Part shown: positions 6,501-60,136 of the stretch, piece by piece
Position numbering within the stretch: position 1 is the stretch's first letter
How the letters are laid out: each line of letters opens with the position of its first letter
Assembly: GCF_949628265.1 (NCBI RefSeq)
Contig: NC_088787.1
Span: 7,306,501-7,370,500 of the forward strand
Length of the DNA: 64,000 nt
Direction: 5' to 3'
DNA from: Cloeon dipterum
Taxonomy: Eukaryota; Arthropoda; Insecta; Ephemeroptera; Baetidae
Notes under the pieces: generated by a model
What the model was told of the DNA's origin: nothing
The model's input: the letters and a program-made list of their open reading frames with translations, nothing else
Database searches by the model: none
Program-made: the position numbers and the translations under genes

Positions 6501-6989
6501 ACAAAAGTCAAATTATTCTATGACTCGCATTTTATCAGTTCACCAATTAATGTAAAACAATTTTGTCTGCTGTCTTTGTAATCCTAATAAGAAATATATC
6601 TCTAAATCTGTAAAGCATTATTACACCAAAAATAAATTAATGGTAGGAATCCCTCGTGAAATCGAATTGAGGTCAATTTTTGGTCCAAAAAGCTTGCTCG
6701 CCGCGCCGCTTTGCTGACAAAATCGGCAGAGCAGGAAGCGCGTGTGTTGTGATGCGATGGAGCCGAGTGCGCGGCAGATAAAAAGCACCACAGTCATATT
6801 ATATTATACAGCGAACAATGTGTGAGTGAGTGTGTGTGCTGTTGTTGTTGCAGATGTGGCGACCGCCTGTTGGCCGTCGACGGACACAGTTTAGAGAACG
6901 TCAAGCACGCCACCGCCGTCAAAATGCTGAAGCAGACCGGCACCAGAGTCACCCTCGAGGTCGTCTCGTGGCTCGGCACAGAGCTCTGA
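566..6989 (+). CDS. Multi-PDZ scaffold, LNX-like (ligand of Numb protein X), 3' part
   Basis: Coding exons: 566-668, 2192-2406, 3162-3554, 4673-4795, 5366-5457, 5923-6081, 6854-6989. All phases match and give 406 residues plus stop; the 5' end lies upstream of the window. Three PDZ domains are visible. The first is at about residues 35-119, with carboxylate loop QLGVRLSG and helix EQASQLIQ. The second is at about 238-309, with SLGMRIGGGLGS and KGDILLSVNG. The third is at about 311-406, with SLGFSIVGGDD and CGDRLLAVDG. A Ser-rich linker (about 120-237) separates the first two. The protein ends directly after the last PDZ at VVSWLGTEL, which from memory resembles LNX1/LNX2 C-termini. LNX proteins are RING-plus-four-PDZ ubiquitin ligases acting on Numb. 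No RING is visible here, so RING and first PDZ would be upstream or absent. The intron after 2406 uses a GC donor. Exon 566-668 is the least certain, but its phase joins cleanly to 2192. Alternative: another multi-PDZ protein of the PDZRN type. Confidence 0.8.
1197..1943. mobile_element. Fold-back MITE, family A, copy 1 (with insertion)
   Basis: The ends form an imperfect inverted repeat: CCAGTTGTAT..CCCTTGGTGTCCGAAGCC on the left is matched in reverse at 1909-1943. The body is nearly palindromic, containing GACGTACTGAAAACCAAAATC and its reverse form. Copies 2 (11838-12239) and 3 (55008-55430) are about 400-420 bases long, so this copy carries roughly 300 extra bases at about 1567-1870. The element lies in the intron between exons 566-668 and 2192-2406. 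No transposase is encoded. Confidence 0.75.
2407..3161 (+). other. GC-AG intron in the LNX-like gene
   Basis: The donor reads CAG/GCAAGT, a strong GC-type donor, and the acceptor is CTCAG at 3157-3161. Cutting at 2406 keeps phase 0 and joins LIQ to SCEKVTLVV, completing the last helix and strand of the PDZ fold. The nearby GT at 2411 would end in phase 1 and break the fold. The intron contains a run of 15 G at 2509-2523. Confidence 0.75.
2509..2523 (+). repeat. Poly-G tract (15 G)
   Basis: An uninterrupted run of 15 G lies about 100 bases after the GC donor of the LNX-like gene. G runs near donors can act as intronic splicing enhancers, but a length artefact is also possible in such homopolymers. 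Confidence 0.9.
3635..4046. mobile_element. Near-perfect inverted-repeat MITE (412 bp)
   Basis: Arms of about 160 bases (3635-3795 and 3885-4046) are almost identical in inverted orientation, beginning TTAAAGACCGTCTTTGACGA and ending with its reverse complement. Both ends carry TTAA, which could be a target-site duplication of piggyBac type, although the adjoining bases are not the canonical CCY. The high arm identity suggests recent insertion. It lies in the intron after exon 3162-3554. The long ORFs here are only the arms read through. Confidence 0.8.
4042..4441. mobile_element. Degenerate copy of MITE family B
   Basis: This stretch aligns by eye with the 12998-13434 and 16469-16910 elements. 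Shared marks are TTTTCTCCGAAATTACCAGC against TTTTCTCCAAAATTTACAG, a TCGAGATCT motif, GGCCGATTTTCTCGAAA, and the end ATCATTCCTTCCTCTTTAAA. It is much more diverged than those two copies. Confidence 0.45.
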
Positions 6990-27111: not shown

Positions 27112-30100
27112 ATGAAGTCGAGTCGGCATCGTGCTGCGATACACCTTGTCGTCCTGATGCTCTGCGTTTATCAATGCAATGGTGAGAAAATATTTGATTA
27201 TTTAATTAAAAAAAAATGCAAGATCTGTAGAGTTGTTATTATAGAAAATAAAAACAGTTATTTGCAGAAAAATTGAAAAAAATATGTTAAAAAAATTGAT
27301 TTTGGTGAGCAGGTCAGTGTTTCGGTGGAACGGAGACTTATGAGAAAACGACGGGCGTCAAGTTCACGTTCGGCACGTCACAAGGCTTGCTGACGCAGCC
27401 AGGCACTGGAATCACAAGGGACTGCACCGCAATTTGCAGACAGACGCCGTCGTGCGCCGCTTTTTCAGTTGGTCAGTCCAAGCAGATTATTCAAAATTAA
27501 ATTTCATTACTAAAAAATCCAGATGAGAAAACCCTATTTTGTACTGTTGACCGAACTAATTACAGATTACGAGAATTCTCGTTGCCAATCGTACACAATG
27601 GGATCTTCGGGACACAGGAACAGCCTTCAGGAAAAAATCGGCAGCAATTTCTACGAGAAAATTTGCCTTCGTGGGGGTGAGTTTTGAGACTTTCGAGTCC
27701 CCAGTGCTAGTAGATCAATTTTCTAATCTATTTTCGGTCAGTTTCCAATCTGAGTGCCATGTGTGGAGACAGACTGTGGGCCTTTGAAAGGGTGCTCGGC
27801 GCCTACCTGGAGGGCTTCGACGACCGCGAGGAACGCAACGTGCAGAGCAAAACTGAGTGCGAGAAGCTGTGCCTCTTCGAGACCGGTTTCACTTGCAGGT
27901 CTGAACTGTTTTTCTATTGAGTAAAGGATTTTAATTATTTTTTAAGAAACAAAATTGATTTTAAATAAATTTAATTATTGTTAGTTAACATGCAATTTAT
28001 CAAATTTATAGTTTATTTTAATAAATTTTTAAATTTATTTATTATGTTGTTACTATTAATTAATTTTAGTTTTATTTTCATTAGGATTTATTATTAAAAT
28101 AATTTTTATCTTGTATTTTACTGAAATGAAACTTTAGCTAATTAGTTAAAAAAAGATTAAATTATTGCGCTGTTTCCCATTAATTGAAGATAATTTAATA
28201 TCTATTACAGCGACAAGGCAAACGCTATGAATATTAATTTAATAGAACTGTCAGAGATAATATTTACAATTATAAAAAAACAGGTGAAAATTAGATCTTC
28301 AAATCATACGAGCCTTGCAATTTATTTCGTGGATTTTGCATTTATTCCGCACCACGTTATTTGATTCTCCTTGTTTCGCTTTTTCAACGTTGTCCCCTGA
28401 TATAAAAAATGTTCCCTGTCACTCGACATTCGCTGTAATCAGAGTAATCCCTCTGTCGGACAGATTTTCGCAGCGTGCAAACCATTACCACTGAATAAAA
28501 ATGAACAGTCACAAAAAAGCTGTCACTTGTCCACTCACTCAGCACTGGCGAGTGGCTTTTTCCACGGCCTGTACATCGATTATCATCCCTCCCTAAAACG
28601 ACCAAAGGGAGAATAAAATACAAAATAAAAAACTGTGCATGGAATTAACAATTTTTTTAGTGCTGCATAAATGTAACTCGATTTACGCTTGAATTCGTAT
28701 TGATTTTGCGAACAGGTCAGCGGAGTATGACGAGACGCAAAATATTTGTCGGCTGAGCAGGGAAGACCGGCGCAGTCAGCCGAATGCGTTCAGAAGACAG
28801 GTCGGAGGCAATGTTGATTACCTCGAGAACCAGTGCGTTCGACGTGAGTTCACCTTTTTATTTCTTGTATTTAAAAAAATATTTTTATCCAACTTAATTG
28901 TTTTTGGTAATATAAGCTCATGTGACTATTTTTCAGTAATTAAAAGACTCTAAAAACCAGAAGCTTTTTTTCTTGAGCAAAACTTAAAATTTTTGTATTA
29001 AATTTTTATTTTAAAATTTGATAATAAAAATTTGGAGATTTGACGGTATGTTAAATAGATCAGAACATTTTTAGGTGGTTGTATGGCTGCCAAACTTATT
29101 AATTACTGATTTTATAGGCAAATATTACAAGTATTCATAATTATTTACCAAATTAAAACAATTTTTTCTTTTATAATTTTTCATATTTAAATTATACGTT
29201 TTCTCAACCAACGGTTTGTATATTTTTGTGCAGCGCTGCCGGACTGTCGTTACCACCCCCGTCCGGACAACGCGGTGCTCTCGATGGACGAGCTGCAGTT
29301 CGCGGCGAGCCAGGGCGAGTGCGAGGCGCTGTGCGACCAGGCCAGGGGCTTCACCTGCCGGGCCTTCACGTTCGCGGTGGACGAGAAGCGGTGCTACCTG
29401 AGCGGTGACGACTCCATCTCGCTCAACAACGCACCCCTCATGCTCAAGCGGGGCGCCCTCTACGCCGAGAAGCAGTGCAGCATCAGTAAGTTGTCTCTTA
29501 TTGGCTTTCCTATTTAGCTTGGACTTCGATTTGTATCCCTTACGCCAATTTTGCGCAAAAAATCAGTTAGTTTTTTTAAATTTATCTCCAAAAAGATCAC
29601 AATTCGCGTCAAAAAAGATAGAAATTTTGGAAAAATAGTATTAGAAATAGTATTAAAAAACAATTCAATTGCAACTGACCTTTTTCTGAAGACCAATTTA
29701 ATAAAAAAAATCAAGTAATCAGACCATTCAATCCCCTGTCCATTATCAATGGTCGATTATTTTTTTAACCTCGCTGGTTGGATGGATTCAGGTCAGTGCG
29801 AGGACGGGATGTTCACCTTCGAGAAGGTGACCGGCCACTTCCTGCGCTCGGCGCAGCAGGTGGGCCTGTCGATGGCGGCGTCGCCCGGCGTGACCCTCGA
29901 GTGCAGCCAGCGGTGCCTCGAGTCAGGGTCAGACTGCCCGGCCTTCACCCTCGACTACGCCGCCATGAAGTGCTTCAAGCTGGACAGGAACACGCAGGGC
30001 CGCAGCAGCGACCTCGCCGCCAGGGACGGACAGAGCTACTTTGAGAAAATCTGCTTGAGAGGTTAGAATTTTTTCTAAATTAGTTTTAACAGGATAAAAT

Positions 30101-33100
30101 CGTAGAATTAATTATTTGCATAAAGAGCATCACAAAATCACCTGTTTTGATCAAAATATAAAAAAGAAAATCCAAGAATAAAAAAAATTAAAGCCGTTTT
30201 ATTTTATTTAGCAGGTTTAAAATAGCTTTTGTATTTAAATCCGTCTGAATATAATAATTTCACCACAGAAAAAAATGTCAATTACGCATATTGCGATTTT
30301 TGAGTAAGTTTTTTAGGCTTTGCTTGCTCCAAAGATAAGGCATGTTTTAATGGTATTAAAATTGTATATACTATGAAATAATATATCTTTAAAATATTGT
30401 TCAAGAAGACCATTGAAAAAGAATAATTTTTATAAATTTGGATGTTGATGAAGGATGGGAAAAGAATATATCTAAAACACATTTCAAAAAAATGGTTTTC
30501 ATTAAAACAAATTTATACAACTCTTATACAAATCTAATTAGTTATTTTTTTTTCAAATCTGCCAAATGAAAATATTTATATAATTATTATTTAATTTTCT
30601 TAGGGAACATCCGAGGTTGTCAGGGTCGTGCGTGGGCCTTCGAGCGGCGGCCGGGCAAGGAGCTGCGCGGCCACGACGACGCCAAGGTGGGCATCGTGCA
30701 GAGCAGACGGGACTGCATGGAGGCGTGCTTGGGCGAGCGGCGCTTCGAGTGTCGCTCTGCCGAGTACGACGCCAAGACGAGCGAGTGCAAACTCAGCAGC
30801 GAGGACCGCAGGAGCAAGCCGGCAGAGTACGTCGACGCGCCGCCGCACATCGAGTACCTCGAGAACCAATGCGTCCAAGGTCGGTCTTTGTTTTTTTTTA
30901 TTAGAAATTAAAACGATTGGCTCCGTGAAAAGGGATATTTTTAGGGAAATTAAATTTTAAAATTAGATAGATGTAGAGCAAATTTAACAAGGAATTGAAC
31001 AATAATTAGCGACAAATGCATAAAATTTAAAAATTAATTTAAATTGTGATTCTGAATCATTTTTAAAACTCAGGGCCTGAACAAAAGATCGTTAATTTTA
31101 AAAATCTTTGAGAAGAATTAATAGAATTGGATCAGCGGGGGCCAGATGTGCGATAAAATTGGCTCGCACTGCGCAGATCCAAGATGGCGTCTGAATGTGG
31201 GAAACAAAAAGCTCTCTTTGGATTGCCGTACGAGTGTCGAGAGTTTGTTTTTACGATCCAAAAGACACAATTAGTACAAGTAGTGCAAATTATGTCAAAA
31301 TATTCACCAAAACTTTTTTTTTTCGCGCATTTACACCTGAACGTTTTTTCACGCCATGCTCCACCGGACGCCATATCTGCGCGTCGCACAAATCTGGTCC
31401 CCGCTGAATTGGATTTAATAGATTTCTTGACTTTTTTAGCATCGATTATTTGTGTATAGCAGTGAAAATTTATAAAAAAACATATCTTCTATAATTTTTT
31501 ATCATTTTCAGAGGTTTTATTTTCTTACTGTTGTATTTTGACCAAGACTTTTCAGTGACCAATTCGAAAAGCAATTTTCTCCTTGCAATTTCCCGATTTA
31601 CTGCGCGAGGAGAGAATGTGCAGCGTTTTGACGGCGCAATTTCCCTCGGATCGTTTGTGATAAATGACGTTGCAGGCGACTTCCGCGGCTGCAACTTCGA
31701 GGCGGTGGCCAACTCGTACCCGCGCTACCTGGACCTCGTGATTCCGTCGGTGAGCGACGAGATGGACTGCGAGAGGCGGTGCTACGCCTACAAGGACTTC
31801 ATCTGCCGCTCCTTCTCCTACTACCCCTCCGGAAATCAGTGCTTCCTCAGCGGAGATGACAGAGGCAAGTCATTTTTTATTTTCCCCTTTTGGCAGTTTT
31901 GCTGAAATTGCACTTTTTGTAGACGCAAAACTTTGAGTTTTTTACAATAAATTTATATTTCTGGAATTTATAAATCCAAAATAGATGTTCAAAACTTAAT
32001 TTTTTATAAATGTTTCTATATTTTCATGTTCAATTAATAGACAATCGATTCTAATTCTGCTTCAAGTATAACTTTTTAATAACTTATCTGAAATAAGTGT
32101 TAATGTTTTTATGTCTTATGAAAACTATGATATTTTGTCATATTTTAAGTTGTCACACCCAAGGTTTGAATCATTAATCCTGGATTTTAATTATATTTTT
32201 TTTTTCAACTGAAATTTTAGATATTTAACCTAAATGTTAGTAATCCCAGACGATAGCTGAAACAATAAAATGAAAATAAAGATTTTCAAAACCATTTTCG
32301 TGTGACTTTCAGCTTCGGCGGGCAATGAGGCGATGATGACGCGGCCAGGGACCAACTACTACGAGCGCAACTGCCGCAACGCCGATGGAAACATGAACCA
32401 ACTGCCCCCGCTGGGGCCGGGCACCCTCGACCCCCAAGGTACACTGTTTGGCAGACCCGTCGACGCCGCTGACTCGCTCCTCCCCACGGGCAAAAGCCTG
32501 AGTAATCATCGCGGATGAGTCCCGAAATTTCTTTAACTTTTGGTTCGCATGATGAGATGTAGACTAGACTAGTGCTGGAAGTAGAAATAATTTTGCACTC
32601 TATAGGAGATTAGAATAGAATATTAGAAAAATAGAACGATTTTTGGCTGGAGGGTCCCTGATCAGGGGCTGTGAAAATGACAATTTTAAGAATCAAATAA
32701 TTTTTTTATCTGAATATCAAATAAATTTGTAGATAATTTATCAGAGGCCATGGGAGAATTTAGCTAGAAATCCCTAATTTCGACTTTTCAATTTGTTGCA
32801 AATTGCTAAAAATTCGAATAATAGTCCGATTTATTAAAACCAAACTCGGCCTGCTAGAACTCGTTGAGGGGCATCGAATTTGACGTGTTGGAACCCCGTG
32901 GATTCGACCAAGGCCCCAAAAACAGAGTTCCGAAATGTCCATAACCGCGTTTTTTCAACTTTTAAATTTTCTATCTCCGGTTCTATCGCACCTACAGCGC
33001 TCTGCTAGTGCTCAAAATGTTTCTTGTCAAATTCTGCGTTGATTAGGCACCGCCCCCACCCGACCCCCGGACCCCGCTGGCCTCCAGCGCCGTACAAATA

Positions 33101-36100
33101 GTCAAAAGTTTTTTATCTTCATTTTTCTACGGATTATATTTTCTTATTACATGTATTTCAAATCCTCTTAGCAGTCCTTATTCTCAACATGAATTTAGAT
33201 AAAAATAATTTCAATTTATTTTAATCTATCTTAAATATTGAGAAGAATTTCCCATTTCTCCCAAAACACGATCCAATTCTTTCTTCGTTTAATTTTTGCA
33301 TTTGAATCTAAAAGATTTATAGCTCCTCTTTCTGCTTTAATTTTTTACGGCCTTTGGAAACGACATTTGTACTCACTTAACTGTCAACTAGAATTTTAAA
33401 AATGTCCAAATTAATTAATTTTCACAGCCCAAATTCTAACATAGTCTGCTACAACCAGACATAAATTTCAATAAATAATCTCTCTAGGCCCTGGAGCGTA
33501 TGGTCCTGGTTTCGGTCCTCCGCGTCCGTCGTACGGAGGTTCCCCGAACGTGCCTCCATTCCCGTTGGGCGTCAACCGGCCCGGCGGCCCTCCGCCCACG
33601 TTCGGCGGCCCTCCGCCCACTTTCGGCGGCCCACTGCCTCCGGGCGACGGCATTAGGTGTCCGGGACGCATGGAGTTCGAGAAGATCACCGGCTTTGAGA
33701 TGACGGGCGAGCGCGGCTTCAGCCTGGGGCGCGAGCGGCTGCCCGGCGTGACGCTGCAGTGCGCCCGCCGCTGTCAAAACGACCCGCGCTGCGCCGCTTT
33801 CAACATCGACTACAGAGCGAGCGAGTGCGTGGGCCTCACCGTCGTCACCGTGTCGAGCCGCATCGACTTGCGCCCCACCGCCGGAGTCGCTTACTTCGAA
33901 GGAATCTGCCTCAGAGGTGAGAACGAAATAAATATATATAATTAAGAAGGCTAGGCTTTTTGCCGCGCGGATCCGTCCGCCCGGTTGCATACTTCAATTT
34001 TCTTCGAGATGATGGGCTTTTCTTATGAATTTTGTTCACTTTAGAAATTTTTTCTTCCAATCAATCCAATTTTGGACCGATATTAACAGTTTTCACCAGT
34101 TTCGCCAATTTTGCAATGCGCAAAAATACACCAATGGTTTTTTGGGGGAAAAACAGCTTTAAAAAACCACCAATTTAGGGATTTTCCTAATTTAAACCAA
34201 AAGGGGTCAAATTTTGCGTCACAAAAGGCATTTTTGTTGGAAATTTCAGTCTTTTGGTGAAACGAGTGGCTTTTATACCAATTTTGTGAACATCCTTTTT
34301 TGGTTATCATTCAAGAGAATTTTCTATCTTCTTTAAAAGTGCGCAAAATGGCATAAAAACCCGCTAAAAACAGTTTTTTTTTGCTATCAAGTAGGTTTTC
34401 TGGAAAAATGCGGGGGTTTGCGAGCCCTAAAAATCATTTTTAGAAATAAAATGGGTGTTTTTTAGAGCTGTGAATTTTAGACGCTTGACAATTTTTTCTT
34501 AAGTTCAATGAACGATCAAATGCGCAATTTTAGCGCTTCGTAGGGTCTAAAAAAGAGCTAGGAACAGTTTAAAATTCAGCGTAAAGTCTGAGGAAACATA
34601 ATTTATTCTTATTGCGACAGGCAATTTTTCTCAGAATTTAATTTTAAGAGGAATTTTTATTAAATTTGTTTTCCAGATTAATTTATTTTTCATGAGTTCA
34701 AATAAAATTCAGTCCGTTGTAAGACGTTTATTATGGCATGCTTCTTTAAACTATTTTAAAGTAATAAGGTAATGTTGTTTTGTTATAAATCACGAAGAAA
34801 TTTTCAGGGCAGAAAAATTTTAACCACCAATTTTTTTTAATTTGTTTTGAAATTAATTTGGGTTATACCTTTCATACAAAAAATTTCATGTTTATTGATT
34901 TAGCGCCCGAGAGATGAGTGTTTGCAACCAATGAGACGGTCAAATTCTGTTTAACTTAGGTGGCGGCTGCGGACAAACTTGGACATTCGAACGATACGTC
35001 AACTATGAATTGCGTGGATTCGTGGCAATGCGTTACCAGGGAATCAGCAAAATCGAGTGCCAGGAGCGGTGTCTTGAAGAGCGAGCCGTCGTTTGCAGGT
35101 AAGATTTTTTTATTATGAAAAAATAATTTCTTTAATTAAAATTTTTATTGTATATTTTTACTTTTTTATTTTTTATAACAAGATTGATATTTAAAATTAA
35201 TTTTAATATTTAATTTAATTTTAAAATGATTTTTAAATATATGTAAAATAGTTAACGTAAAATGGATAACGAGCGTTGCAGTTTAGACAAATTTTTAATT
35301 AAATAAATCCTTCCAACTAGCATGATAATCTTAAAATTTTTATTTACAAAATTGTAAATGGTACATTTATTAAGATCTAGTTCAGCAAAATTATAATAAT
35401 GCGTCATATATTTATTGCCGTGTAAAGTGAAGTAAAAAAATACTCTCCTGTCATTTTATCAAAATTTTAATTTGATTAACAAAGTAGATTCGTAGGTAAA
35501 TCCGAGCACATTTATAATTAAAATATATTGTAATTAATTTTTGGATTGTAGAGGATTTATTTAAGTTTTAAGAAACCTAGCTTGTCTATCATGTTATTGA
35601 CAGAAAATGATTTTTCACAAGTCGGAGGAATACATACAATTTGCTAATTCCTTTGTATCACTCAGATCTGCGTCGTACAACTTCCGTCGTCGTGAGTGCT
35701 TCCTGAGTTCGGAGGACAGATTCAGCCAGCCGCAGGCGTTTATCGCCTCTGTCGACACCGACTACCTCGAGAACCAGTGCGCGCCAAGTAACCAAATTCT
35801 ATTTTATCGCGTCACGGTTTCTCAACTGAGCGAATTTTAAAGGACCGGCGCGGTGCGTGTACCGCAACCAGCAGCGAGACATGCAGCTCATGTACGTGGA
35901 CAAGAGTTTGTCGGCCTTCAGCGACTCCAGCTGCCAGCAGGCGTGCGACGTCGAGAGAGAGTTTGTCTGCCGCTCCTTCACCTTTTTGAGCCAGGTCAAT
36001 GAAAGTCGAATTTATTAATTTGGGTTAAAAATGGATTTTAGGATATTATTTTGGGAAAATTAATTAAAAAAAACATATTTGAATTTTTAAATTTAAACAA

Positions 36101-39100
36101 TTAAAAGTTGCTCTATTTAAAGTTTTACAAATTTCAGGAAGATCGCTAGTTCTAAATAAACAGCATTGCTAAGAAAATTATATTTAAATGGAAACGTTGC
36201 CCATGATGCTGAACATCTGTTTCAAACGATATTTTACTTTTTATGAACATGTTTAATCTCCTTGATTTTTAATTTTCAAATTTTGTTGCTTCCAAAAAAA
36301 ACGTTTTCATATCTCTAAACGTGGCCAGATTTAAAATTTAAATATAGGGACATTCTTTGAGAACAAAAATTAGAAAACCTTTAAATTAAACTTGATCTGT
36401 TATAATTTTCTTTAAAAAAATTGGTAGCAAAACAATTTAACTTGTGTACTTAATCAAAAAAGTATTTTATAAACTTTAATTTATTTGAATTCTTTAAATA
36501 AATAATTAACGTTTTAAGCCTTTATTTTAGTTAATTTAAAATTTGTGTTTATATTTATTAAAAATATCTTTAATCATTTTAGCTGTTTAAGTTTTTAAAT
36601 CATTTCGTATTAGTGTATACACATCTTATAAAACACAAATTATGAACAGAAAAAAATAAATATGTTCGACAAACTACATTAGATATCTCAATTTAAATAA
36701 AAAAATGCGTATTTAATTTGAATGAATGTTCATCTTGCTAAAATATATCTATATCAATTATTAATTATCCTTGCTTTAAATTTTTGCTCTTCAAAATTTC
36801 CATTATTTCGAACTTAATTAAACTTAAAAATATATATATTTCTGATTTTTCAGACTGGTCTGAACACAAATCAGTGCTTATTGAGCGGCGACACGGGCAT
36901 CGCGGTGGGCAGGAGCGGCTTCGTGCCCGTTCCAGGCGCGCTCTTCGCCGAGCGGGAGTGCACGGGGCCACCTGGGCCCCCAGGGACATTCCCCGGCGGG
37001 CCGCTGGGCCCATTGGGCCCGTCAAACGCGCCTCCGGGCTACAACGTGCCGCCACGTTACGGCCATAGCAACCTGCCCCCTTACCCGAGCCAGGGCTACC
37101 CTAGGCCAAGCCAGGGATACCCTGGACCGAGCCCAGCATACCCTGGACCGAGCCAGGGTTACCCTGGACCGAGTCAGGGTTACCCACGCCCGAGCCAGGG
37201 CTACCCTGGGCAACAGTACCATTCGAACTACGGCAACTCGTTCAGCCCGACCAACAACTATCCGCCGGCCCTGCTGCCAGGTCGACCCTATCAGAGCTAC
37301 CCTGGCGGAAATAACTACTACGGAGGGGGCGCAGGAAACAACTACCCTGTCGGAAGGTACAACTCAGGGCCGTCGGCCATTCCGCCCATCGGCCCTACCG
37401 TCGGAGGGTTCGCCGGACACTATCCGCCAGGCTTCCAGGGCGGTTTCCAGGGTGGATTCGTTGACGCGGCCTCCAACGGCATCTACAGCGATGCCGACCT
37501 CAGCCCCTACCCTTGCAGGTTCACCCTTACCTACGAGAAGGTTGCCGGAGCAATGTACACGAATGCGAGAAGGTAAAAATGATATTAAATTTCTAAGAGT
37601 GTATTACTCAGGGAATGCACATTATCATTTGTTGAATTAGTTTTGATGTAAATAATCGGTGAAAATTTGGTTTTTAAATAGTTTAAAACTGCAATATGAA
37701 TTATTCAATCTCTTCAATCAAAAATTTTTTGTTTGTATTATTTAAAGCAATTTTATTTTCTGTAAATTGATTGATTTAAATATTAAAAAACAAATACTTG
37801 AGCATACGACAAATTGTTACATAGTTGTAAAAGCAATATAATACGTGTTTAATGCAAGATGATTTGGTAGAATATGGTTAATAATCGGACGATTCGGAAT
37901 TTATATTAATTTGCTAAATGCAAAAGTCATGCCCCAAAAGGGGAATTTGTGTGATACCACATTTAAGCACTATTTTCATTTAATTTCAGCTCAACAACAG
38001 TGGAAAATTTAACATAATCCAAAAGTAAAGGGGATTAAAATACATTTAATTATACTCAGCAATTTTATAAAACTAACCTGAAAATCTCAGACAGATCAAT
38101 AAATTTTTTATAATTCTCTCAATTGATTGTTAAATGTATTATGGTTTCTGGAGTCTTTTTTTAATAATTGATACCTCGTAAAAAAAGTAAGTGAAAAAAC
38201 CCCTGCCGCTGATCTCCACCCTAAAAATGAATTAAATATATATTTGAATAAATATAAATAATTCCTCGTATCAGAAAAACTGCACGCATGGACAGAAACA
38301 ATTTTAATCAGTAAACATATTAAATCAGACTGTTTGAAAGTCACTTAACAAAATGCACTACTTTGAATATTTTGATTCGTTTGATCAGAATCCCAATTGA
38401 ATTTCACTAGTCTGCCTACCGCAAATATTCCGTCACTCCCTTTATTTCAAATTGCGTCTGACCGAAAAATTAATTTGCACGACACCACCCCAGCAAATTG
38501 ATTCATCATACTTTCGAGTGAAGTGCATTCAATGCCTTTATTTTTTTGCAAATGTGTGAAGCCGGGTGTGATAGCGGTGCTCTATAACCAGAATTGCATT
38601 GTTGTGACGCTCTTCCTGTGTGCAATATTGCAGAGATCCGATCAAGACCTGGGTGGATCTGGGCATCACTGCACACTGCCTGGTCGAGTGCGCGCAGCAG
38701 CGTGACCGCTGCCTTGCCGTCTCGCTGGAGAACGTGCGCGGCGGACGACAGCGGTGCTACGCGCTCGACAGGTCGGCCGACGGCGACAACCAGCCCCTGC
38801 AGGCCGCGCCCGACCTCGGATACTTCCAGAAGATCTGCTTGAGAGGTACAAATGAAGATGAATCATGATAGGATAAATAATCAGTGTTTTTTTTACGTTG
38901 TTAATTTTATTAAAATCATAAAAGGGGCCTTTGTTAAATTTAAATTTACCAAAATTTAGATTATTTTATTGTAAAATAATTTTTCTAGCAAAAGGCACAC
39001 ATTTTTGACAGTTTTGGCTCATTCAGTAAATTTCGCAACACTTTTCGCTCTTGAATCAATGAAATAAATCATACAAATTTTTATTTTTTTCTGGTGTTTA

Positions 39101-42100
39101 CAATCGGTTAACAAACTGCCAGAAAAAAACTAGTATTTAACAGTTTCCTAAAATCTTCCCACGATTTTCTTAATTCTTTATCGATGTTGCGCCAAATAAA
39201 AAGACAGAGACTATGAAAAATGGCAGTTAAAAAATAATCTTTCGTAAATCTATACAGATCTGTGATTATAATTTTAAAACAATATAATTTACGTCGTTTT
39301 TCACTTTTTTGAGGGACATTTTAAATTTATTTAATTTTAATGACGCAAATCTTATCTCATTTGAGTTAAATTTAAAATAAATAAGCTTAGATTGGATTCT
39401 TTCCATCAAGAATACCTAATTTAAGGCCAACAGACATGGTAAAAGCTTGTTACGAATAATTTTCTGTAAATATTAATGTGTTGTAGCTTAAAAAACTATT
39501 AGCATATTTTAAAAACCAGAAAATACCTTCAAAATAAGTCCCCGTACACCTAGGGGGTTGTTAAAAAATTTCTGAATGTAGTGTCCGCTTTCATTTTCAA
39601 GGAATCGCACTTCGAAATAATTAATACGATATTTTTGTATTCAAAAATGTACACAATTGCAAAAACTGAACACCGTAAGACCCTTCTGAACCTTATCTAA
39701 TGAGTAAAAGAGTTAAAGGGTTGCCCATCTCCCATGAGAAAAATTTTAATTAATTATTTTTTATAAAAAAGAAGCCTACAAATGTAATGGATTACTTTTT
39801 TTTATAAAAATATGTAGCTTTATAGGTTTTATCGATCTTCAAACCATTTTATTTTTGTTACAGAACGACCTTGTCCAAAGGCGTGGGCCTTCACACGCGT
39901 GCCCGGCTTTGAGCTGGCGCTGAAAAACACGCTGGAAGTGCGCAACGTTCACAGCCGCCGCCAGTGCCAGGATGAGTGTCTCCGCTCCTCGAACGTCATC
40001 TGCAGGTGAGTCTTCTTATCTGCGAAATTTGTATATAGACTTAATCAAAATTTAACGTCAAAGGTCTGCGACGTACTACTCTCGGGAGCGAATTTGCAAA
40101 ATCAGCGCCGACACCAGACGCACGCAGCCGGATTATTTCAAGAAAGCAACGCCTGATGTCGACTACATGGAAAACGAATGTGCTCCACGTAAGTGTGCTG
40201 TTTTCCGTCGCCATAATGTCAAAGTTTCAATCAAATTTTTAAAAATATCCCAATATAAACCTTTTAGAAACAATTAGCATTTTTTTAATGTACCATAAAT
40301 TGAAAAAATAGTAATTCGATTTCATCGCAATATTGAAGATTAGATCGTTGGGGCTTTGTACTAAAGTATTTTTCTTTTATAAAAATCACCACATGGCAGA
40401 TTGATAGATTTTTGCAATAAAGTTTTAATCTATTAGTTACACATTTATTTAAAAATAAATAAAAATCCAATCATAAATAATAATATTTTAATTTAGGTGT
40501 CATCAAATTTGGTGTTAAATTAAAATAAAGTCATAAGGAAATAGGAAAAAATCTTCCATTGAAACCTGCATAAATCATGTCTTCAATTTTTTTGTTTCTT
40601 TTATTTACTAAATTTAATCTTGAAAAATCGCTAAATAAATTACAATTGTCTTGCAGAGCCAGCTAATTGCGAGTACTCGGACTTCCCTGGCCGCTTCCTG
40701 CCCTTCTCGGACCGCTTTGTGGCGCGCGCCTTCGATGTCACCGAGTGCCGCCGCCTTTGCGACCAGGAGCGCGAGTTCCCTTGCCGCTCCTTCAACTTCC
40801 ACCCATTGAGACGCGAGTGCTTCCTCAGCTCAGACGACACTTTCACCGCCGACAAGAACGCGTTACTCACCGACAGAGACTTTTTCTACAGCGAAAGAGG
40901 CAGCTGCAGCAATGGTAAATTATAAAATTAATGCAGACACAAATAAGAAATTAAATATGACTTAAAATAAAAACTTTATAGGTTTAAAATTTTATTTTAT
41001 TTACAGGATGAAAATCAGTCTTTTAGTAGACCCAGAGATAATAATTAAAAACAGTTTCGGATTAAATTAATAATTTATTTAATTTTTGTCAGTCAAATTT
41101 TAATTTTTTAATATTTTATGCTGCTGGTCATTCTCAAATTGTTCGTGATAACACAATTGGTTACAAAGTCCCAAATCTTCTTTCATGATTATTAAAACAA
41201 GATCTGTGCAGTAATTAAATTTTCCGATTATTTTACAGTCAAGGTGGATTGCACGCAATCGGACATGTTGATCACTTTCATGTTCGCCGCACCTTTCGAG
41301 GGAAGGGTGTACGCAACTGGCAACCCTCAGGCGTGCTTTGAGCTGGGCAGCGCCCAAAATCAACTCGTACTGCGCGTACCGCTCGGAACTCAATGCGGAA
41401 CCGTCCAACAAGTAAGAAAATTATTTAGAAAATTAAAAAAACAAGGAGGTGCATTTAATTAGTAAAACCTGTTATATTTTAATTTTTTTCACAATTTTTA
41501 ATAAATATTTTCAGGGTCGTGGGCGCTACGTGAACCACGTCGTCATCCAGCAGAACTCGGTGATTATGCAGGAGACCGATAAGACGGTGCGTGTCGAGTG
41601 CGCTTTCGACGCGAGCGACCAAACGCTATCCTACGCGCCGCAGGGCAACCGACAGTTTGAGGGCGGTGGCATCAGCGTCTCGTAAGCATAATCCATATTT
41701 GCAGTCAATACCAAACCTTCCCCTAGCATTTTTCATTCAAGTTTATTGCAGAATTTTAAATAAATTATTCTGATCTTTTTAGAATTTGTTTTTTATTAGT
41801 CATTTTATAAATTAAATTAATTTTATAATTATTTCAGGGTGCCTTTCCGGCCTTCGGCGACGAACATAGTGTCCAACACGGCGCCAACGCCACACGTGAG
41901 CATGCGGATCGTGACCAGAGCCGGTCAGGTGGCCCAGGCCGTCGGCCTTGGAGAAGACCTGCAGCTCAGGATCGAAATTGACCCATCCAGCGCTTTCGGC
42001 ATTTTCGCTCGCAATTTGGAGGCCAGGACCGAAAACGGAGAATTGCTCACACTGATCGACAACACTGGGTCAGTTGAAATTTATTTTAAAATTAAATTTA

Positions 42101-44652
42101 AATTTGTAACAATTCTTGACACCCAGTTTAGTCGTATATAGCTTAAATGTTCAATATTTTATTTAAATTCTAGGTGTCCAAGAGACCCAAACATCTTCCC
42201 AGGGCTCTTCGTAGAGCAAGGAACGCGCAACCTGTTCGCAAACTTCAAGGCTTTCCGCTTCCCCTCCACGTCAAGCGTCAACTTTGTCGTGACGATCCAC
42301 TTCTGTCAGGATATTTGTGATCCGGTAAGTCCCTCAGCTTCCAAAACCTGAACCTTTTTGTCTATTCCTTCCTCAGGTGCAATGCTTCAACGGAATGTTC
42401 TCGTTTGGACGCCGCCGGCGTGACGTCGGAAACGAGACTGCGGAGCTGGAGGAAAAGGAGGAAAAGGAGGAGGTGGCCACGACGACGGCAGTTCCGGTGA
42501 CCACGACCGTTAGAATGGTGCAGGAGGCCTCGTCGACGGAGGAGGACGCTCCTCTGGAGGGAGAACTGGTTAAGGACGTTTCAGTCGACCCAGTGTCGGA
42601 GGAGCAGCCGGCGTCAACCAGCCAGCCAGAAACAAAAGCAAATAAAACCTATGGTATAAATTAAAACAAAAAAAATCTATGAGAGACAATTTCAAACATT
42701 TTACAAATCAAATTATATTACTTGATATAAAAAAATTGATATTAATTCATTAAACAAATTAGATTTAGGATAATTTAATCTTTAAATTTTTAGATTTAGT
42801 CATAGTTAAATTTCTGGAAGTATAATAAAAATAAATGTCAGTCAGTACTAATCAATCACACTGTAAATTTAATCAATTTCTTTAATGTTCTATTAAATTC
42901 GTATATAATTAAAATTTCCTTGTAAAAATTCTCCTAGATGCTGACGCACTTCATTTGCCTCCTGGCTACCCGACCGGCATCAGCGCAGAAGAGCAGCAAC
43001 TGCAATTGAACAAAGCCGTGGTGCCGAGTCCCGACAGCAAAGATGAAGACAATAAGGAGAATGAAATTAGCGGCAACGAGCTCCTGCCCAGTGAAATGCC
43101 GCTTCAGCTCAGGGTATTTCTAATCCTGCGGCTCGATTTTTACAACGCCTAATTTTAATCTTATTGTAGCTGGTTGTCGGAGAGGACTCGATGCCCAATG
43201 AAAACAATGACACGACAAAGAAGAACGTTAATCGCAACAAATTCACGGTCAACCCGAATTTCAATCCGTATGGCGCTTATCCAGAAAGTGAGTTGGATTT
43301 TTTAATATTGATATTTTTTAACAACTGTGATATATATTTGTGGGTTAGTTCATTGCATGTTTTTTTCCTAGCTCAGACAGGTATTTTCTTTATTGAAAAA
43401 AAATCATCATTAACTTTCTCTCGAATTTTTTCTATATTTTGTCAGTATTTTCACTCAAGGATCAAATTAAACCCCTCTGTTGTCCTCGGAATGTAAACAA
43501 AACTGAATGTTTTGGATATTAAAAAAAAATCTTAGATTAAGAAGCTAAATTTTCAAACAAACTCATCTTTAAAAATGTATATTTCATTCGCACAACATAT
43601 AATATTTAGCTAACACCCCGAATAGTAAATTTAAATTCGCTTTAAATTAAATTAGTCAAATTATTATTTTATTCTTTTTTTAAATTTTTCGGTGAGTGAC
43701 AGCATTAATAAATTGGAACAATTCTGCTGACTGCTTTTGCCCTGAAATCCCTTATACATAAATAATTCAAAATTAAATTAACTTCTGAATTTTAATTTTC
43801 TTTTAAAATTTGCTACGCTCCACCATTTATTGTTAGTATGCAAAAAAAAATACAGCGAATGCTTGATTTATCATGAATTTTTATATTATTTATTTCAAAT
43901 TTGTGCATTATAAGACAGAAAATGCAAAATATGTACAAAAATTAATTAAATTAGTGTAACCAGTTGAACCAAAATTGATATTTTGACATTAATTTTACTC
44001 CTATCCAATTTAGTTTATTAAATATCAATGTGCAAAATGGAAAAAACATTTTTGCACACCCCAAAAGTGAGTGAAAGCAATTAATAAATTGGCAAATATT
44101 GAGTTTAAGCCGTGTACGTAGTGAAGTTTTAAATTAAAATTGAAAATATAGGCCTAGAGGGATGAAATTAATTGTCATTTTGATATTTCACTACACACTC
44201 CGAGAACTTTTAGTAACAAAAATGGCCGGAAAATCTCCCATTTAAATTAATTTGATATTAAAAACAAAAAACACAGCAATATGCGAGTGAGAATAATACA
44301 ATTTTTTTTTTTAATTTCAGCTGTGTACTCGGAGGACGGGTACGTGTGCACGCCGTCCTCGACGGTGATCGCGTCCGTCTTCACGACGGTGTTCTTCAAC
44401 GTGGGTCTGGTGGCCGGCTTCATTTTCTTCTACCGCACCAAGAAGCGGCAGTGGCAAAAGCTGAGCGGGCTGGAGCAGCCGGCGTCGTTCCAGGGCTCGG
44501 AACAGGGCTTCTCGCCGGAGGTGCTGTTCCGCAGCGTGTACGACCGTCTGCCGCCGCGGCCTTCCTTCTCCACGCTGCAGAACGCCATCACGGCGCGGCA
44601 CACCGGCAACAAGGCGGCCGAGCAGCCGCTCTCCGACGAGATGCTGCGCTGA
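27112..44652 (+). CDS. Twelve-PAN-domain ZP transmembrane protein (NompA/Trynity type)
   Basis: Coding exons: 27112-27181, 27313-27471, 27566-27676, 27742-27898, 28716-28843, 29234-29485, 29792-30061, 30604-30879, 31676-31864, 32313-32438, 33488-33916, 34960-35098, 35666-35787, 35843-35994, 36854-37572, 38634-38845, 39864-40005, 40064-40188, 40657-40914, 41239-41411, 41515-41681, 41838-42068, 42174-42324, 42377-42653, 42938-43113, 43170-43287, 44321-44652. The total is 5661 bases, in frame throughout, for 1886 residues. Order: signal peptide (1 to about 24), twelve PAN/apple domains (24 to about 1345), ZP domain (about 1346-1590), RRRR furin-type site (1598-1601), acidic Thr/Ser-rich stalk, transmembrane helix (about 1792-1814), and a 70-residue cytoplasmic tail. 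PAN plus ZP proteins in insects (NompA, Trynity, Neyo, Nyobe) build apical extracellular matrix linking epithelia or sensory dendrites to cuticle. ZP domains polymerise after cleavage. The exact ortholog is undecided. The start is the first ATG of a good signal peptide. Confidence 0.9.
27313..29485 (+). other. PAN triad 1 (A1-B1-C1)
   Basis: Type A (27313-27676) ends FYEKICLRG. Type B (27742-28843) begins CGDRLWAFERV, is cut by a phase-2 intron after TCR, and ends DYLENQC. Type C (29234-29485) has CRAFTFAVDEKRCYLSGDD and ends EKQC. Cysteine spacing follows the PAN/apple pattern in all three. Domain borders coincide with phase-1 introns, which allow whole modules to duplicate in frame. Confidence 0.85.
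31133..31406. mobile_element. hAT-like MITE family 1, copy 1
   Basis: Terminal inverted repeat CAGCGGGGGCCAGATGTGCG / CGCACAAATCTGGTCCCCGC plus TG. It is flanked by an exact 8-bp duplication AATTGGAT (31125-31132 and 31407-31414). Eight-base duplications and CAG-starting ends are typical of hAT elements. It sits in intron 8 of the PAN/ZP gene. Confidence 0.88.
31865..32312 (+). other. GC-AG intron in the PAN/ZP gene
   Basis: The donor is GAG/GCAAGT. Splicing at 31864 keeps phase 1 and gives SGDDR-ASAGNEAMM. The alternative GT donor four bases downstream puts the next exon into a frame with an early TGA, so the GC donor is required. Confidence 0.75.
32520..33480. other. Intron DNA with an unidentified GC-rich patch
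   Basis: The patch at about 32840-33090 is GC-richer (CACCGCCCCCACCCGACCCC) and may be a fragment of an unrecognised repeat. No exon was seen. Confidence 0.4.
33488..37211 (+). other. Linker 1, PAN triad 3 (A3-B3-C3) and repetitive linker 2
   Basis: Exon 33488-33916 starts with a Gly/Pro linker carrying two GGPPPTF units, then A3 ending YFEGICLRG. B3 is 34960-35098 plus 35666-35787, split after VCR like B1. C3 is 35843-35994 plus the start of 36854-37572. Linker 2 includes about seven imperfect PSQGYPG/PSQGYPR heptads at about 37081-37205, followed by Tyr/Gly/Pro/Asn-rich sequence to about 37490. Such linkers are typical of extensible or cross-linked matrix proteins. Confidence 0.8.
34097..34429. 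mobile_element. hAT-like MITE family 2, copy 2
   Basis: It starts CAGTTTCGCCAATTTTGCAA and ends GGGGGTTTGCGAGCCCTA, with the same internal landmarks (ACACCAATGGTTTTTT, CTTTTGGTGAA, GGAAAAATGCGGG) as the 52538 copy. No clear target duplication. It lies in intron 11 of the PAN/ZP gene. Confidence 0.65.
37500..40914 (+). other. PAN triad 4 (A4-B4-C4)
   Basis: A4 starts at the end of exon 36854-37572 (CRFTLTYEKVAG) and continues in 38634-38845, ending YFQKICLRG. B4 is 39864-40005 plus 40064-40188, beginning CPKAWAFTRV and ending DYMENEC. It is split after ICR by the gene's second smallest intron (58 bases). C4 is 40657-40914 (CRSFNFHPLRRECFLSSDD). It directly precedes the ZP domain. Confidence 0.85.
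41239..42420 (+). other. ZP (zona pellucida) domain and furin-type site
   Basis: Five exons (41239-41411, 41515-41681, 41838-42068, 42174-42324 and the start of 42377-42653) encode a ZP domain. ZP-N begins VDCTQSDMLITFMF. ZP-C includes LRIEIDPSSAFGIFARNLEA, then CPRDPNIFPGL and FVVTIHFCQDICDPVQC. GRRRRD follows at once (codons at about 42407-42424), the usual convertase site that releases ZP ectodomains for polymerisation. Confidence 0.88.
44321..44652 (+). other. Transmembrane helix and cytoplasmic tail exon of the PAN/ZP gene
   Basis: A hydrophobic helix (about 44365-44434, SVFTTVFFNVGLVAGFIFFY) is followed by RTKKR as stop-transfer and a tail of about 70 residues ending LSDEMLR and TGA. 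Type I topology follows from the N-terminal signal peptide. Confidence 0.85.
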
Positions 44653-48520: not shown

Positions 48521-51500
48521 ATGGCTCAACTGCGGATCAGCATTTTTCTTACTTTTCTACATTTTGGACATACATTTTCATCAGTCGGGTGAGTCCATCT
48601 GCTTTTTTCATTGCGGCCGGGTTGCTAAAGTGCATCAAAACTTCTTCATTTGCGCGGATTATGCAAAGTGGAAATGGATAAAGCAGACACAAAAGTTTAG
48701 TAAAAGCTTCTCGATTTTTTTTCTTGTGTGCATTATTTGCGATTATTATTCGATTGTTTTTCTCGCACAAAACACAACTTCCCTTTTTAACCAAGTATTT
48801 TAGAGAATAATGTGAATTGTGTGAACTATTAATGTGAAAATGACAAGTTTTTATTGTTATTTGCCTGCAGTCTCAGCTGAATAAAGGCAGTAATGAGCAA
48901 AAAATAGAAATAAGAGAAAAATATTTATAACAATCAATATATCACAGTCAAAAACATTTTAATACAAAACATGAAAACTATATTTTGTGCTTTTTTATGA
49001 CTCATATTCAGGAAAAGTCCCTTAAAATTGATAGATTTAATGATATGACTTGGAAAAACAGAAGTTTCCGGTGAAACGAATGAATATCGTGATCGAATGA
49101 CGTTATATAAGACTTCAGAAAAAGTTTTTGGAAAGCTGCTTTGCGTCTAGACTGTTAACAGAATATTTTCTCAAAATTTTAAGTTTTGTATATGGCAAAT
49201 AAGAAACCATTTTTTGCAAAATATTTAATTTCTGCAGATAATTGTAATCCAATCTGGGACAAAGAATATCTAGAAAAGCAGCGTGGGTCACATGTGCGAT
49301 AAAATTTGTTCCCACTGCGCAGATCCAAGATGGCGTCTGAGTGTGAAAAACAAAAGCTCTCTTTGGATTCCTGTACGAGTGTCGAGAGTTTGTTTTTACG
49401 ATCCAAAATACACAATTAGTTCAAGTAATGCAAATTATGTCACAATATTGATGAAAACTTGCTTCTTTTCGCGCATTTTCACGTGACCGTTTATTCGCGC
49501 CATACTCCACCGGACGCCATATCTGCGCGTCGCACGAATCTGGCCCCCGCTGTAGAAAAGCTTTAAAAGTGGACAATAACTGTTTTGGCAGCAATTAATT
49601 GGCTAAAATCAAATTCAATAAACACCGCAGCTATTAAATACGATCTCGGCATCGATTAAATGCTGATATTTTGATCATAAAAAATATGGCTTATTTTTGT
49701 CCATTTTCTAATTTTCATTTTTATTTCGATAATACACGTGAGGTGTAAACTAATTTATTTAAAATTGTTCAAGTCAGTCCCCAAGTTAGGAGGAAGGTAC
49801 ACCGTTGTAACCCAGGTAGCAGCAAGGGTCTAACAAATCTGCAATTTTTTGCTTTACAAAATTAATTTGAGCATCCTTGCAATATGAAATGTGTTTCTGC
49901 GGCATTCAATATTTTTCTTTCCCCCATAACGAGAAATTAAAGACAAAATTTCGTCTTCAGTACAGACACCAATCAATTTCACTATTAATTTACTCCAGTT
50001 GAAACAATTTTGCTGTATACGAGACACTCATAATGCAGTTCACACTCATCACGAAACAGGAGTGAAAATCCCATTTGTTTATTGAATTGAGCGCAATTCA
50101 AGAATTTCTTTCAGCACGTTCAATGGGGGGATCACACTTACGAGTGGTATATATATGGCCAAATTAATGAGGCCTCGCGAGATTTCAATCGCGCACAGAA
50201 GGAAAAAAAATGGAGTCGGGGTGGTGTGATCAAAAGGAAACAAAACTAATGAGCGCGGCTCGATCGTCGTCTTATATGCTGTGTATGTTATTTTCATGCA
50301 TTTATTTATAGTCTGGACGCTTCGGAAATGCCGACCATGGGCACGAGCGAGGAGCCCACCCCCGCCCCTGCCGCCCCCAGGAGAAGAGAAAAGCCAATTA
50401 CGCTAGAGGATATTTTGCCTGATGACCCGATGCTGTACGATAAGATGGCTCCGCCGAAAGTGGAAGGCGAGTGTTTGTTTGTTTGCATGGCGAACACGAC
50501 TTCTTGCTTTATTCTATTATTGTCTCTGCTTTGATCAAGACTTTTTGTTCTTTTCTCTTGCAGATCACCCCACCATCGTTCGATTTCACGTCACCGTCAT
50601 GAGTCTCGACTCTATTGACGAAAGCTCCATGGTAAGTTTTTCTTTTCTGAAGTTGAATCGAATTGACAGATTTTTTTTGAGTTTTTGCTACAATATTTGT
50701 CAAAGCTTGATCTAAAATTGTTGTTTCTTAGCGGTTTTAATTTTTTTGGGAGGCAGAGAGTTGAATACATTTTTGGTAACATTTTATTTTTGTTCATTGC
50801 GGGAAGTGACATGATGGATTTAATCGAAATCTTAAAAGCGTCGGAAATTTGATTTTCAGGAAGAAAATTTTGATTAAGTTTCGAAGTCTTGCTAGAAAAG
50901 TTTATATTTATCATATCAAATTATAGATTTTAGTCTGCATTTCAGCAATTTAGTCAATTTTTTTTTTATAAAATAAACAGACGATAAGTTTGAAGACGCA
51001 TTTTTTCACTCAGAATTAAATTATCGTAGTCATGATGTTTATTTTATCAGATTATTTATAATTGTCTACACTTACAGAACCTCAATACTTGTGCATACGA
51101 TATAAAAATTCAGTTATAAGCATACCCCGGTAAAATAAATTTTGCTTTGATGACAAATGCTAATAAAAATTAGATACATTATATATAATAGCTTTAAGAA
51201 ATAGGTAAATTGCCATGTTTGCAGAAGTTTATTAACAATGTAATAATTTTACAAGGTTAGCAGCCTTTTTAATTTTTAAAAATTTGAAAGCACAATATTT
51301 AAACCTTTTTTACACGCGCCTTTATAATTATTTTCATCAGCGGGGACCAGATGTGCGATAAAATTGGTTCCTACTGCGCAGATTCAAGATGGCGTCTGAA
51401 TGTGGGAAACAAAACGCTCTCTTTGGATTGCCGTACGAGTATCAAGAGTTTTTTTTACGATCCAAAAGACACAATTAGTACAAGTAACGCAAATTATGTC

Positions 51501-58225: not shown

Positions 58226-60136
<1,911 letters not shown>

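What the first reader, a model, noticed from the sequence alone, without database searches (positions are those of the whole stretch)
27313..40914. Twelve PAN domains arranged as four A-B-C triads in front of a ZP domain
Seen: three PAN subtypes recur in fixed order four times. Type A ends Y-F-x-K/G-I-C-L-R-G; type B begins W-x-F-x-R and ends D-Y-x-E-N-x-C; type C has C-R-S/A-F and C-(F/Y)-L-S-(G/S)-D-D. Nearly all module borders are phase-1 introns. Known: PAN plus ZP matrix proteins such as NompA have only a few PAN domains. Inference: a three-domain cassette was duplicated as a unit, perhaps to lengthen an extensible tether between epithelium and cuticle.
Basis: partly seen in the sequence, partly recalled or inferred. 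Interest (0 to 1): 0.75.

Follow-up and report, generated by a model that had tools for sequence, protein, structure and literature searches.

The report
Ancient twelve-PAN cuticle-surface matrix protein
A mayfly gene encodes a large secreted surface protein built from a three-part domain cassette repeated four times; the same layout is found in relatives from ticks, spiders and crabs to cockroaches, so the repeat is very old, and no study of this protein turned up in the papers searched.

Summary
A 27-exon + strand gene (27112-44652) encodes 1886 residues: signal peptide, twelve PAN/apple domains in the order ABC-ABC-ABC-ABC, an eight-cysteine ZP module, an RRRR furin-type site, a membrane helix and a short tail. 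The window is at or near the mayfly Cloeon dipterum. Domains group by subtype, not by triad. The arrangement is not a mayfly novelty: 43 of 76 proteins examined (75 hits plus this one) read exactly ABCABCABCABC, including chelicerates, a millipede, crustaceans, springtails and non-holometabolous insects. Each triad forms its own clade across arthropods, so all four predate living arthropods. Nine of eleven domain junctions have median lengths of 3-10 residues; the other two are long and variable, giving blocks of 6+3+3. The sea spider Pycnogonum has a fifth triad, a copy of triad 2. It is not NompA. The 'extensible tether' is untested and not favoured. Best reading: an apical-matrix ZP protein with a hinged, multivalent PAN arm. 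No holometabolan ortholog was seen, with limited sensitivity.

The parts
27112..27314 (+). signal peptide (exon 1 27112-27181 and first bases of exon 2)
   Evidence: hydrophobic N-terminus read from the sequence, no signal predictor run
27313..27676 (+). PAN A1 (2 exons: 27313-27471, 27566-27676)
27742..28843 (+). PAN B1 (27742-27898, 28716-28843; internal phase-2 intron)
29234..29485 (+). PAN C1 (one exon)
29792..30061 (+). PAN A2 (one exon)
30604..30879 (+). PAN B2 (one exon)
31676..32374 (+). PAN C2 (31676-31864, 32313-32374; GC-AG intron between)
32375..33657 (+). variable Pro/Gly-rich linker between triads 2 and 3 (78 residues)
33658..33916 (+). PAN A3 (in exon 33488-33916)
34960..35787 (+). 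PAN B3 (34960-35098, 35666-35787)
35843..36961 (+). PAN C3 (35843-35994, 36854-36961)
36962..37513 (+). variable Pro/Gly/Tyr-rich linker between triads 3 and 4 (184 residues; contains 21-bp tandem repeats 37085-37209)
37514..38845 (+). PAN A4 (37514-37572, 38634-38845)
39864..40188 (+). PAN B4 (39864-40005, 40064-40188)
40657..40914 (+). PAN C4 (one exon)
41239..42409 (+). ZP module (exons 41239-41411, 41515-41681, 41838-42068, 42174-42324 and start of 42377-42653), 8 cysteines
42410..42421 (+). furin-type site RRRR
42422..43287 (+). variable acidic stalk (rest of exon 42377-42653, exons 42938-43113, 43170-43287)
44321..44652 (+). last exon: membrane helix (44365-44430), short cytoplasmic tail, stop

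Best explanation
The gene encodes an apical extracellular matrix protein of a pan-arthropod family (here called 4xABC-ZP). Shown by sequence: an ABC PAN cassette in front of a ZP module was amplified to four copies before the living arthropods split, and order, spacing and the identity of the copies have been kept since. Inferred working: the protein reaches the apical membrane with its C-terminal helix, is released at the RRRR site, and its ZP module builds or joins a pre-cuticle/envelope layer, as reported for Trynity and LET-653. The PAN array (a six-domain block, a hinge, a three-domain block, a hinge, and a three-domain block directly joined to ZP) projects from that layer as a largely rigid, hinged, multivalent arm that binds other matrix partners and sets matrix spacing. 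It is not itself an elastic element.
For: Twelve PAN_1 matches. Subtype clades 60/60 each. 43 of 76 proteins exactly ABCABCABCABC, 17 more with only A1 matched in two pieces. Triads L1-L4 each 14 of 14 rows in a clade, bootstrap 97-99. An ortholog is closer than the best own paralog in 138 of 156 comparisons. Nine of eleven junctions have median length 3-10 residues; C2-A3 and C3-A4 have medians 51 and 69. AlphaFold2: 562 of 819 residues at pLDDT 90 or more in the 8-PAN model of Homarus P0084, linker 571-629 below 50; triad 4 plus ZP of Blattella P0076 confident, then a disordered stalk and a helix. Foldseek: factor XI and kallikrein apple domains and HGF N domain, ZP3. Of 43 full-array proteins 38 have eight ZP cysteines, 39 a furin-type site and 38 a hydrophobic helix. 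Literature: ZP-only Trynity still forms matrix in S2 cells, Trynity without ZP does not (PMC12758534, section 7 read); LET-653 PAN domains bind a loose luminal core and its ZP domain a membrane-proximal matrix (PMC4970718, passages).
Against: No expression, localisation or binding data for any member were found. The models do not fix how PAN domains pack (pTM 0.48 and 0.54; factor XI and kallikrein matches have global TM of at most 0.21), so a rigid arm is inference. Trynity's PAN domains are dispensable for matrix formation in S2 cells and LET-653's partly so for function; that could hold here too. Pfam's CUT_N scores 21.6 bits, below its cut-off of 27, in this protein. Copies of triad 3 are less clear: only 7, 9 and 10 of 13 orthologs of A3, B3 and C3 beat the best own paralog, and B3 misses its clade by four rows. 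Deep branches ordering the four triads are weak (29/0 to 89/79). The 75 hits were found by likeness to this protein and within 0.55-1.75 of its length, so they favour the same layout.
Confidence: 0.7

Rival explanations
1. Extensible tether: repeats were added to lengthen an elastic link between epithelium and cuticle.
For: Two Pro/Gly-rich linkers, long in the mayfly (78 and 184 residues), could give some slack; Trynity matrix is described as elastic (PMC12758534, section 7).
Against: Linkers are as short as 14 and 37 residues in other species and differ in composition (Pro/Gly, Gly-only, Ser/Thr), so their length looks weakly constrained. In complete records the number of triads stayed four, Pycnogonum with five being the exception. 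Disulfide-tied domains should not unfold easily (recalled).
Confidence: 0.12
2. It is the mayfly NompA and links sensory dendrites to the cuticle.
For: Same general plan of PAN domains, ZP, furin-type site and membrane helix; NompA-type proteins are weak hits (28% identity).
Against: The two NompA-type proteins score B-B-B-B-C with no A type; their ZP lies outside the 13 of 13 clade of this family (97/96); Cryptotermes has both a member of this family (P0007) and a NompA-type protein (P0074).
Confidence: 0.04
3. The gene model joins two neighbouring genes, or the repeats were homogenised recently.
For: No transcript was examined here; the Cloeon record P0001 lacks the end of the stalk and the membrane helix.
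Against: Neocloeon's record is also 1886 residues at 80% identity over 99%; the same order occurs in distant species; P0001, apart from a longer N-terminus and small differences, parts from the model only where it appears to read into the intron after 43113; orthologs beat paralogs in 138 of 156 comparisons, the opposite of homogenisation.
Confidence: 0.03
4. The PAN arm is only a passive spacer or bulk mass that sets layer thickness, without specific ligands.
For: PAN domains of Trynity are not needed for matrix formation in S2 cells.
Against: Eight of twelve positions are exact clades of 15 and three more miss by one, all four triads are clades, and several PAN modules are nearly as conserved as ZP (B1 62%, A2 and B2 58%, ZP 61%), more than a filler would need.
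Confidence: 0.2

Closest known systems
Trynity (Drosophila) and other three-PAN ZP proteins
   Same: PAN domains, ZP, furin-type site and membrane helix; [quoted passage not shown] A three-PAN ZP protein of Trichogramma (P0167) scores weak A/B, then B, then C in order.
   Different: One cassette at most instead of four; ZP of P0167-P0169 in another clade. That P0167 is Trynity was not tested; no Drosophila sequence was obtained.
Single-cassette ABC-ZP proteins of chelicerates and crustaceans (P0088, P0111, P0112 and others; unnamed)
   Same: A-B-C then ZP, about 530-1080 residues; in the ten used, all A, B and C domains fall with the A, B and C of the long protein.
   Different: One cassette; separate ZP clade (9 of 9, 97/99). 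Its named members are chelicerates and crustaceans; many hits there are unnamed.
NompA (P0075 Cimex, so named by a source; P0074 Cryptotermes, same pattern)
   Same: Several PAN domains, Gly-rich stretch, ZP, furin-type site, membrane helix (for Cimex).
   Different: Five PAN matches B-B-B-B-C, no A type, different ZP clade.
C. elegans LET-653, NOAH-1/2, CUTL-18
   Same: Multiple PAN domains with a ZP domain in apical matrix (PMC4970718, PMC5769628, PMC11398461: passages).
   Different: Sequences not obtained here, so subtype content and kinship were not tested.

Membership tests
PAN/apple domain (Pfam PF00024) | profile match above the curated cut-off | tested here: met
   12 stretches in the whole protein; the nine domains scanned singly score 23.5-61.9 bits against 21.4. 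B3, B4 and C4 were not scanned singly; the piece A4-C4 plus ZP gives three stretches.
PAN/apple domain (Pfam PF00024) | six cysteines (apple type) and apple fold | tested here: met
   six in each of 12; Foldseek of the Homarus ortholog to factor XI, kallikrein and HGF N domain
ZP module proteins | ZP-N/ZP-C profile match | tested here: inconclusive
   CUT_N 21.6 bits, below cut-off 27; 7 of 7 members of alignment A1 (this protein included) match CUT_N at E up to 1, best 4.6e-08
ZP module proteins | ZP fold and 4+4 cysteines | tested here: met
   eight cysteines (38 of 43); model of the Blattella ortholog matches ZP3, E 3.4e-07, target TM 0.36
ZP module proteins | furin-type site and C-terminal membrane helix | tested here: met
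   RRRR and helix in this protein; 39 of 43 and 38 of 43 in the set
ZP module proteins | forms or joins matrix after cleavage | not testable with these tools
   needs protein
NompA family | five PAN domains of B/C type and the NompA ZP clade (as seen in two records) | tested here: not met
Trynity-type three-PAN ZP proteins | three PAN domains before ZP and membership of that ZP clade | tested here: not met
   twelve PAN domains; ZP in a separate clade from P0167-P0169; Trynity itself was not in the tree
pan-arthropod 4xABC-ZP family (unnamed, defined here) | ABCABCABCABC with position-specific copies A1 to C4, then ZP | tested here: met
LET-653/NOAH of nematodes | orthology | not tested
   no nematode sequence obtained

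The most novel reading that the evidence does not exclude
A distinct, ancient class of apical-matrix protein, carrying a twelve-domain arm whose copies have each kept a private role since the first arthropods, was lost from Holometabola (and perhaps true bugs). Fly genetics would therefore have missed a basic layer of the arthropod body surface.
Probability: 0.35. Interest if true: 0.7.

Novelty: new variant of a known kind. Interest (0 to 1): 0.55.

Why it matters
PAN-ZP proteins shape the outer layer of cuticle and narrow tubes in flies and worms, but what the PAN domains do is unclear. A protein with four fixed cassettes, conserved from ticks to cockroaches yet shown mostly as 'uncharacterized' or 'hypothetical' and sometimes as let-653 or plasminogen, gives a direct handle: which copy is indispensable, and why the order stays. 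If the apparent absence from Holometabola is real, it marks a difference between the surface matrix of flies and that of most other arthropods, including ticks and mites.

Tried and rejected
NompA orthology: rejected. Recent or mayfly-specific duplication: rejected. Simple doubling of a six-domain ABCABC block, which predicts triads 1+3 and 2+4 as sisters: not seen; 1+2 was an exact clade for B and near for A, 1+4 (unsupported, 15) for C, and 3+4 appeared; the order of duplications stays unresolved. Short ABC-ZP proteins as recent truncations of the long one: disfavoured by separate ZP clades, though short A and B domains nest among long ones.

Literature: nine searches ran. No paper held both 'Cloeon dipterum' and 'PAN domain', none any of six LOC names, none 'PAN domains', 'ZP domain' and 'arthropods' together. 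A phrase search for twelve, 12, multiple or tandem PAN domains matched 214 papers, of which 20 were listed; by title one concerned PAN domains, a C. elegans preprint (passages). Supplements and most subscription journals were not searched.

Ranatra P0107 (380-residue ZP fragment, true bug) is unresolved: its ZP scores highest with this family's profile (141.5 bits; short 127.1, NompA 84.0, three-PAN 54.6, arachnid 22.1, profiles built from unequal numbers, 12 to 2) but joins NompA on long branches in the tree (88/78).

Absence from Holometabola rests only on no such named hit among 75 and 32 proteins. Two Trichogramma three-PAN proteins at 26-27% identity show that Hymenoptera are in the database, but only two NompA-type records surfaced, so recall is poor near 28% identity. 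cannot exclude unnamed holometabolan hits, because the named reference set that I used held none.
Full report
What is there. Splice sites were chosen by eye from consensus; one intron uses GC-AG. A Pfam scan finds twelve PAN_1 stretches, each domain has six cysteines, and after them come an eight-cysteine ZP module, an RRRR site, a variable stalk, a membrane helix and a short tail. The nearest database protein is a Cloeon dipterum prediction, 98% identical over 92%, and Neocloeon's record has the same 1886 residues at 80%. The Cloeon record lacks the end, apparently because it reads into the intron after 43113; the window encodes the remaining exons.

Subtypes and cassettes. Within this protein 2 of 20000 shuffled labellings reach the grouping by identity of A/B/C, while 19272 of 20000 reach that of the triads. 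In a tree of 180 domains from 15 of the 43 complete proteins, one per genus, A, B and C are exact clades of 60; eight of the twelve positions (A1, A2, B1, B4, C1 to C4) are exact clades of 15, A3, A4 and B2 miss by one and B3 by four. Of 13 module borders 12 have an intron, all phase 1, against 4 of 14 other introns. B1, B3 and B4, not B2, share an internal phase-2 intron.

Age. The search returned 75 proteins, limited to 0.55-1.75 times the query's length. With subtype profiles, 43 of 76 (window protein included) read exactly ABCABCABCABC; 17 more differ only by an A1 matched in two pieces (unnamed metagenome proteins; nearest named relative a mite in 15 and a tick in 2); 2 are NompA-type; the other 14 are fragments, interrupted or have extra domains. 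The set is not one per species: it holds isoforms and near-duplicates. Named complete members include mayflies, damselfly, katydid, locust, cockroach, termites, stick insect, thrips, springtails, crab and crayfish, a copepod, Daphnia, Artemia, ticks, horseshoe crab, spiders, mites and a millipede (group names recalled). Position-specific profiles label the copies A1 to C4 in order in all 43 (built from the same 43, so only a consistency check). In a tree of concatenated cassettes (14 long, 9 short and 2 three-PAN proteins; 67 rows), L1, L2, L3 and L4 are each 14 of 14 with bootstrap 97 to 99; L3+L4 is 89/79 and the rest of the order is unresolved. So four distinct cassettes existed before chelicerates and mandibulates parted. 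The Pycnogonum protein has 15 domains; its second and third cassettes are sisters (100/99) inside L2, an independent case of the cassette being copied as a unit.

Spacing. In the 43 complete proteins nine of eleven junctions have medians of 3 to 10 residues; four records (P0010, P0024, P0048, P0050) have outliers there, perhaps annotation faults, not checked. Only C2-A3 (14 to 246) and C3-A4 (37 to 281) are long throughout, and those printed look low in complexity. The plan is therefore six domains, a linker, three, a linker, three, then ZP. In 14 species mean identity is 23 and 32% for the linkers, 40-62% for PAN domains, 61% for ZP and 20% for the tail; an ortholog beats the best own paralog in 138 of 156 comparisons, with A3, B3 and C3 the weakest (7, 9 and 10 of 13). 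AlphaFold2 on whole Homarus (P0084) and Blattella (P0076) proteins gives confident PAN and ZP domains and low-confidence linkers and stalk. Best PDB matches are factor XI and kallikrein apple domains and, for the second model, these and ZP3. Global TM scores are low, so packing between domains is not established.

Relatives. A profile of short A-B-C-ZP proteins found 66 proteins: its named members are chelicerates and crustaceans, plus three more distant ones (Nymphon and two Trichogramma); many others are unnamed or ZP fragments without PAN matches. Domains of the ten short proteins used fall with A, B and C of the long ones. The ZP tree separates the long family (13 of 13, 97/96), short family (9 of 9, 97/99), three-PAN, arachnid five-to-six-PAN and NompA types. 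A reasonable inference is that one ABC cassette in front of ZP is the older state and that the long family multiplied it.

How it may work. In S2 cells ZP-only Trynity still makes matrix and Trynity without ZP does not (PMC12758534, section 7). In worms LET-653 uses its PAN domains to bind a loose luminal core and its ZP domain to bind near the membrane (PMC4970718, passages), acting through ZPc with a role for cleavage (PMC7665627, passages). By analogy the long protein should be cleaved at RRRR, enter a pre-cuticle or envelope layer through ZP, and present twelve PAN domains as an arm with two hinges. That positions kept their own identity argues for specific partners. These steps are inferred, not shown.

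Absence from Holometabola. No named holometabolan protein was among the hits. Orthologs in other insects are found easily, so one of ordinary divergence should have been seen; a strongly diverged one could be missed, and unnamed hits were not tested against holometabolan sequences. This is a lead, not a result.

Verdict. It is a new variant of the PAN-ZP matrix proteins, not a new kind.

Noticed in passing
window 31133-31406 and 49279-49552: Two copies (88-90% identical in three aligned pieces) of a 274-bp element with inverted ends CAGCGGGGGCCAGA/TCTGGTCCCCGCTG and 8-bp flanking duplications (AATTGGAT; TAGAAAAG): looks like a hAT-type MITE (class recalled), the first inside the B2-C2 intron. 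Part of a third copy lies near 51366 (73 of 80 bases).
   Followed up: partly
window 2191-6986 (+), 53038-56433 (+), 58576-59824 (+), 61492-63930 (+): Neighbouring genes: a PDZ protein (probably several PDZ), a neurotransmitter-gated ion channel, a PP1-like metallophosphatase and a DEP-domain protein (coding segments; six pieces scanned with Pfam, two of them below cut-off). An ordinary setting.
   Followed up: partly
P0049 (Pycnogonum litorale): Fifteen PAN domains: the second cassette has been duplicated.
   Followed up: yes
P0070: A protein filed under the moss Sphagnum jensenii looks like a mite member of this family (76% to Dinothrombium over 633 residues): animal DNA in a plant assembly.
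   Followed up: partly
P0051, P0052, P0054-P0065, P0067, P0071, P0072; P0136-P0138, P0141-P0143 (unnamed metagenome proteins): Large members of the long and short families with long inserts; the second set is nearest to the gall mite Fragariocoptes (49-56%). An intron-poor mite lineage is a guess; the DNA was not looked at.
   Followed up: partly
P0107 (Ranatra chinensis, 380 aa): A lone ZP fragment in a true bug that scores highest with this family's ZP profile but groups with NompA in the tree: possible remnant.
   Followed up: partly
P0093, P0094, P0097 (scorpion, spiders): ZP proteins of 858-939 residues with five or six PAN matches in a two-cassette-like order, another branch of the PAN-ZP group.
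   Followed up: no
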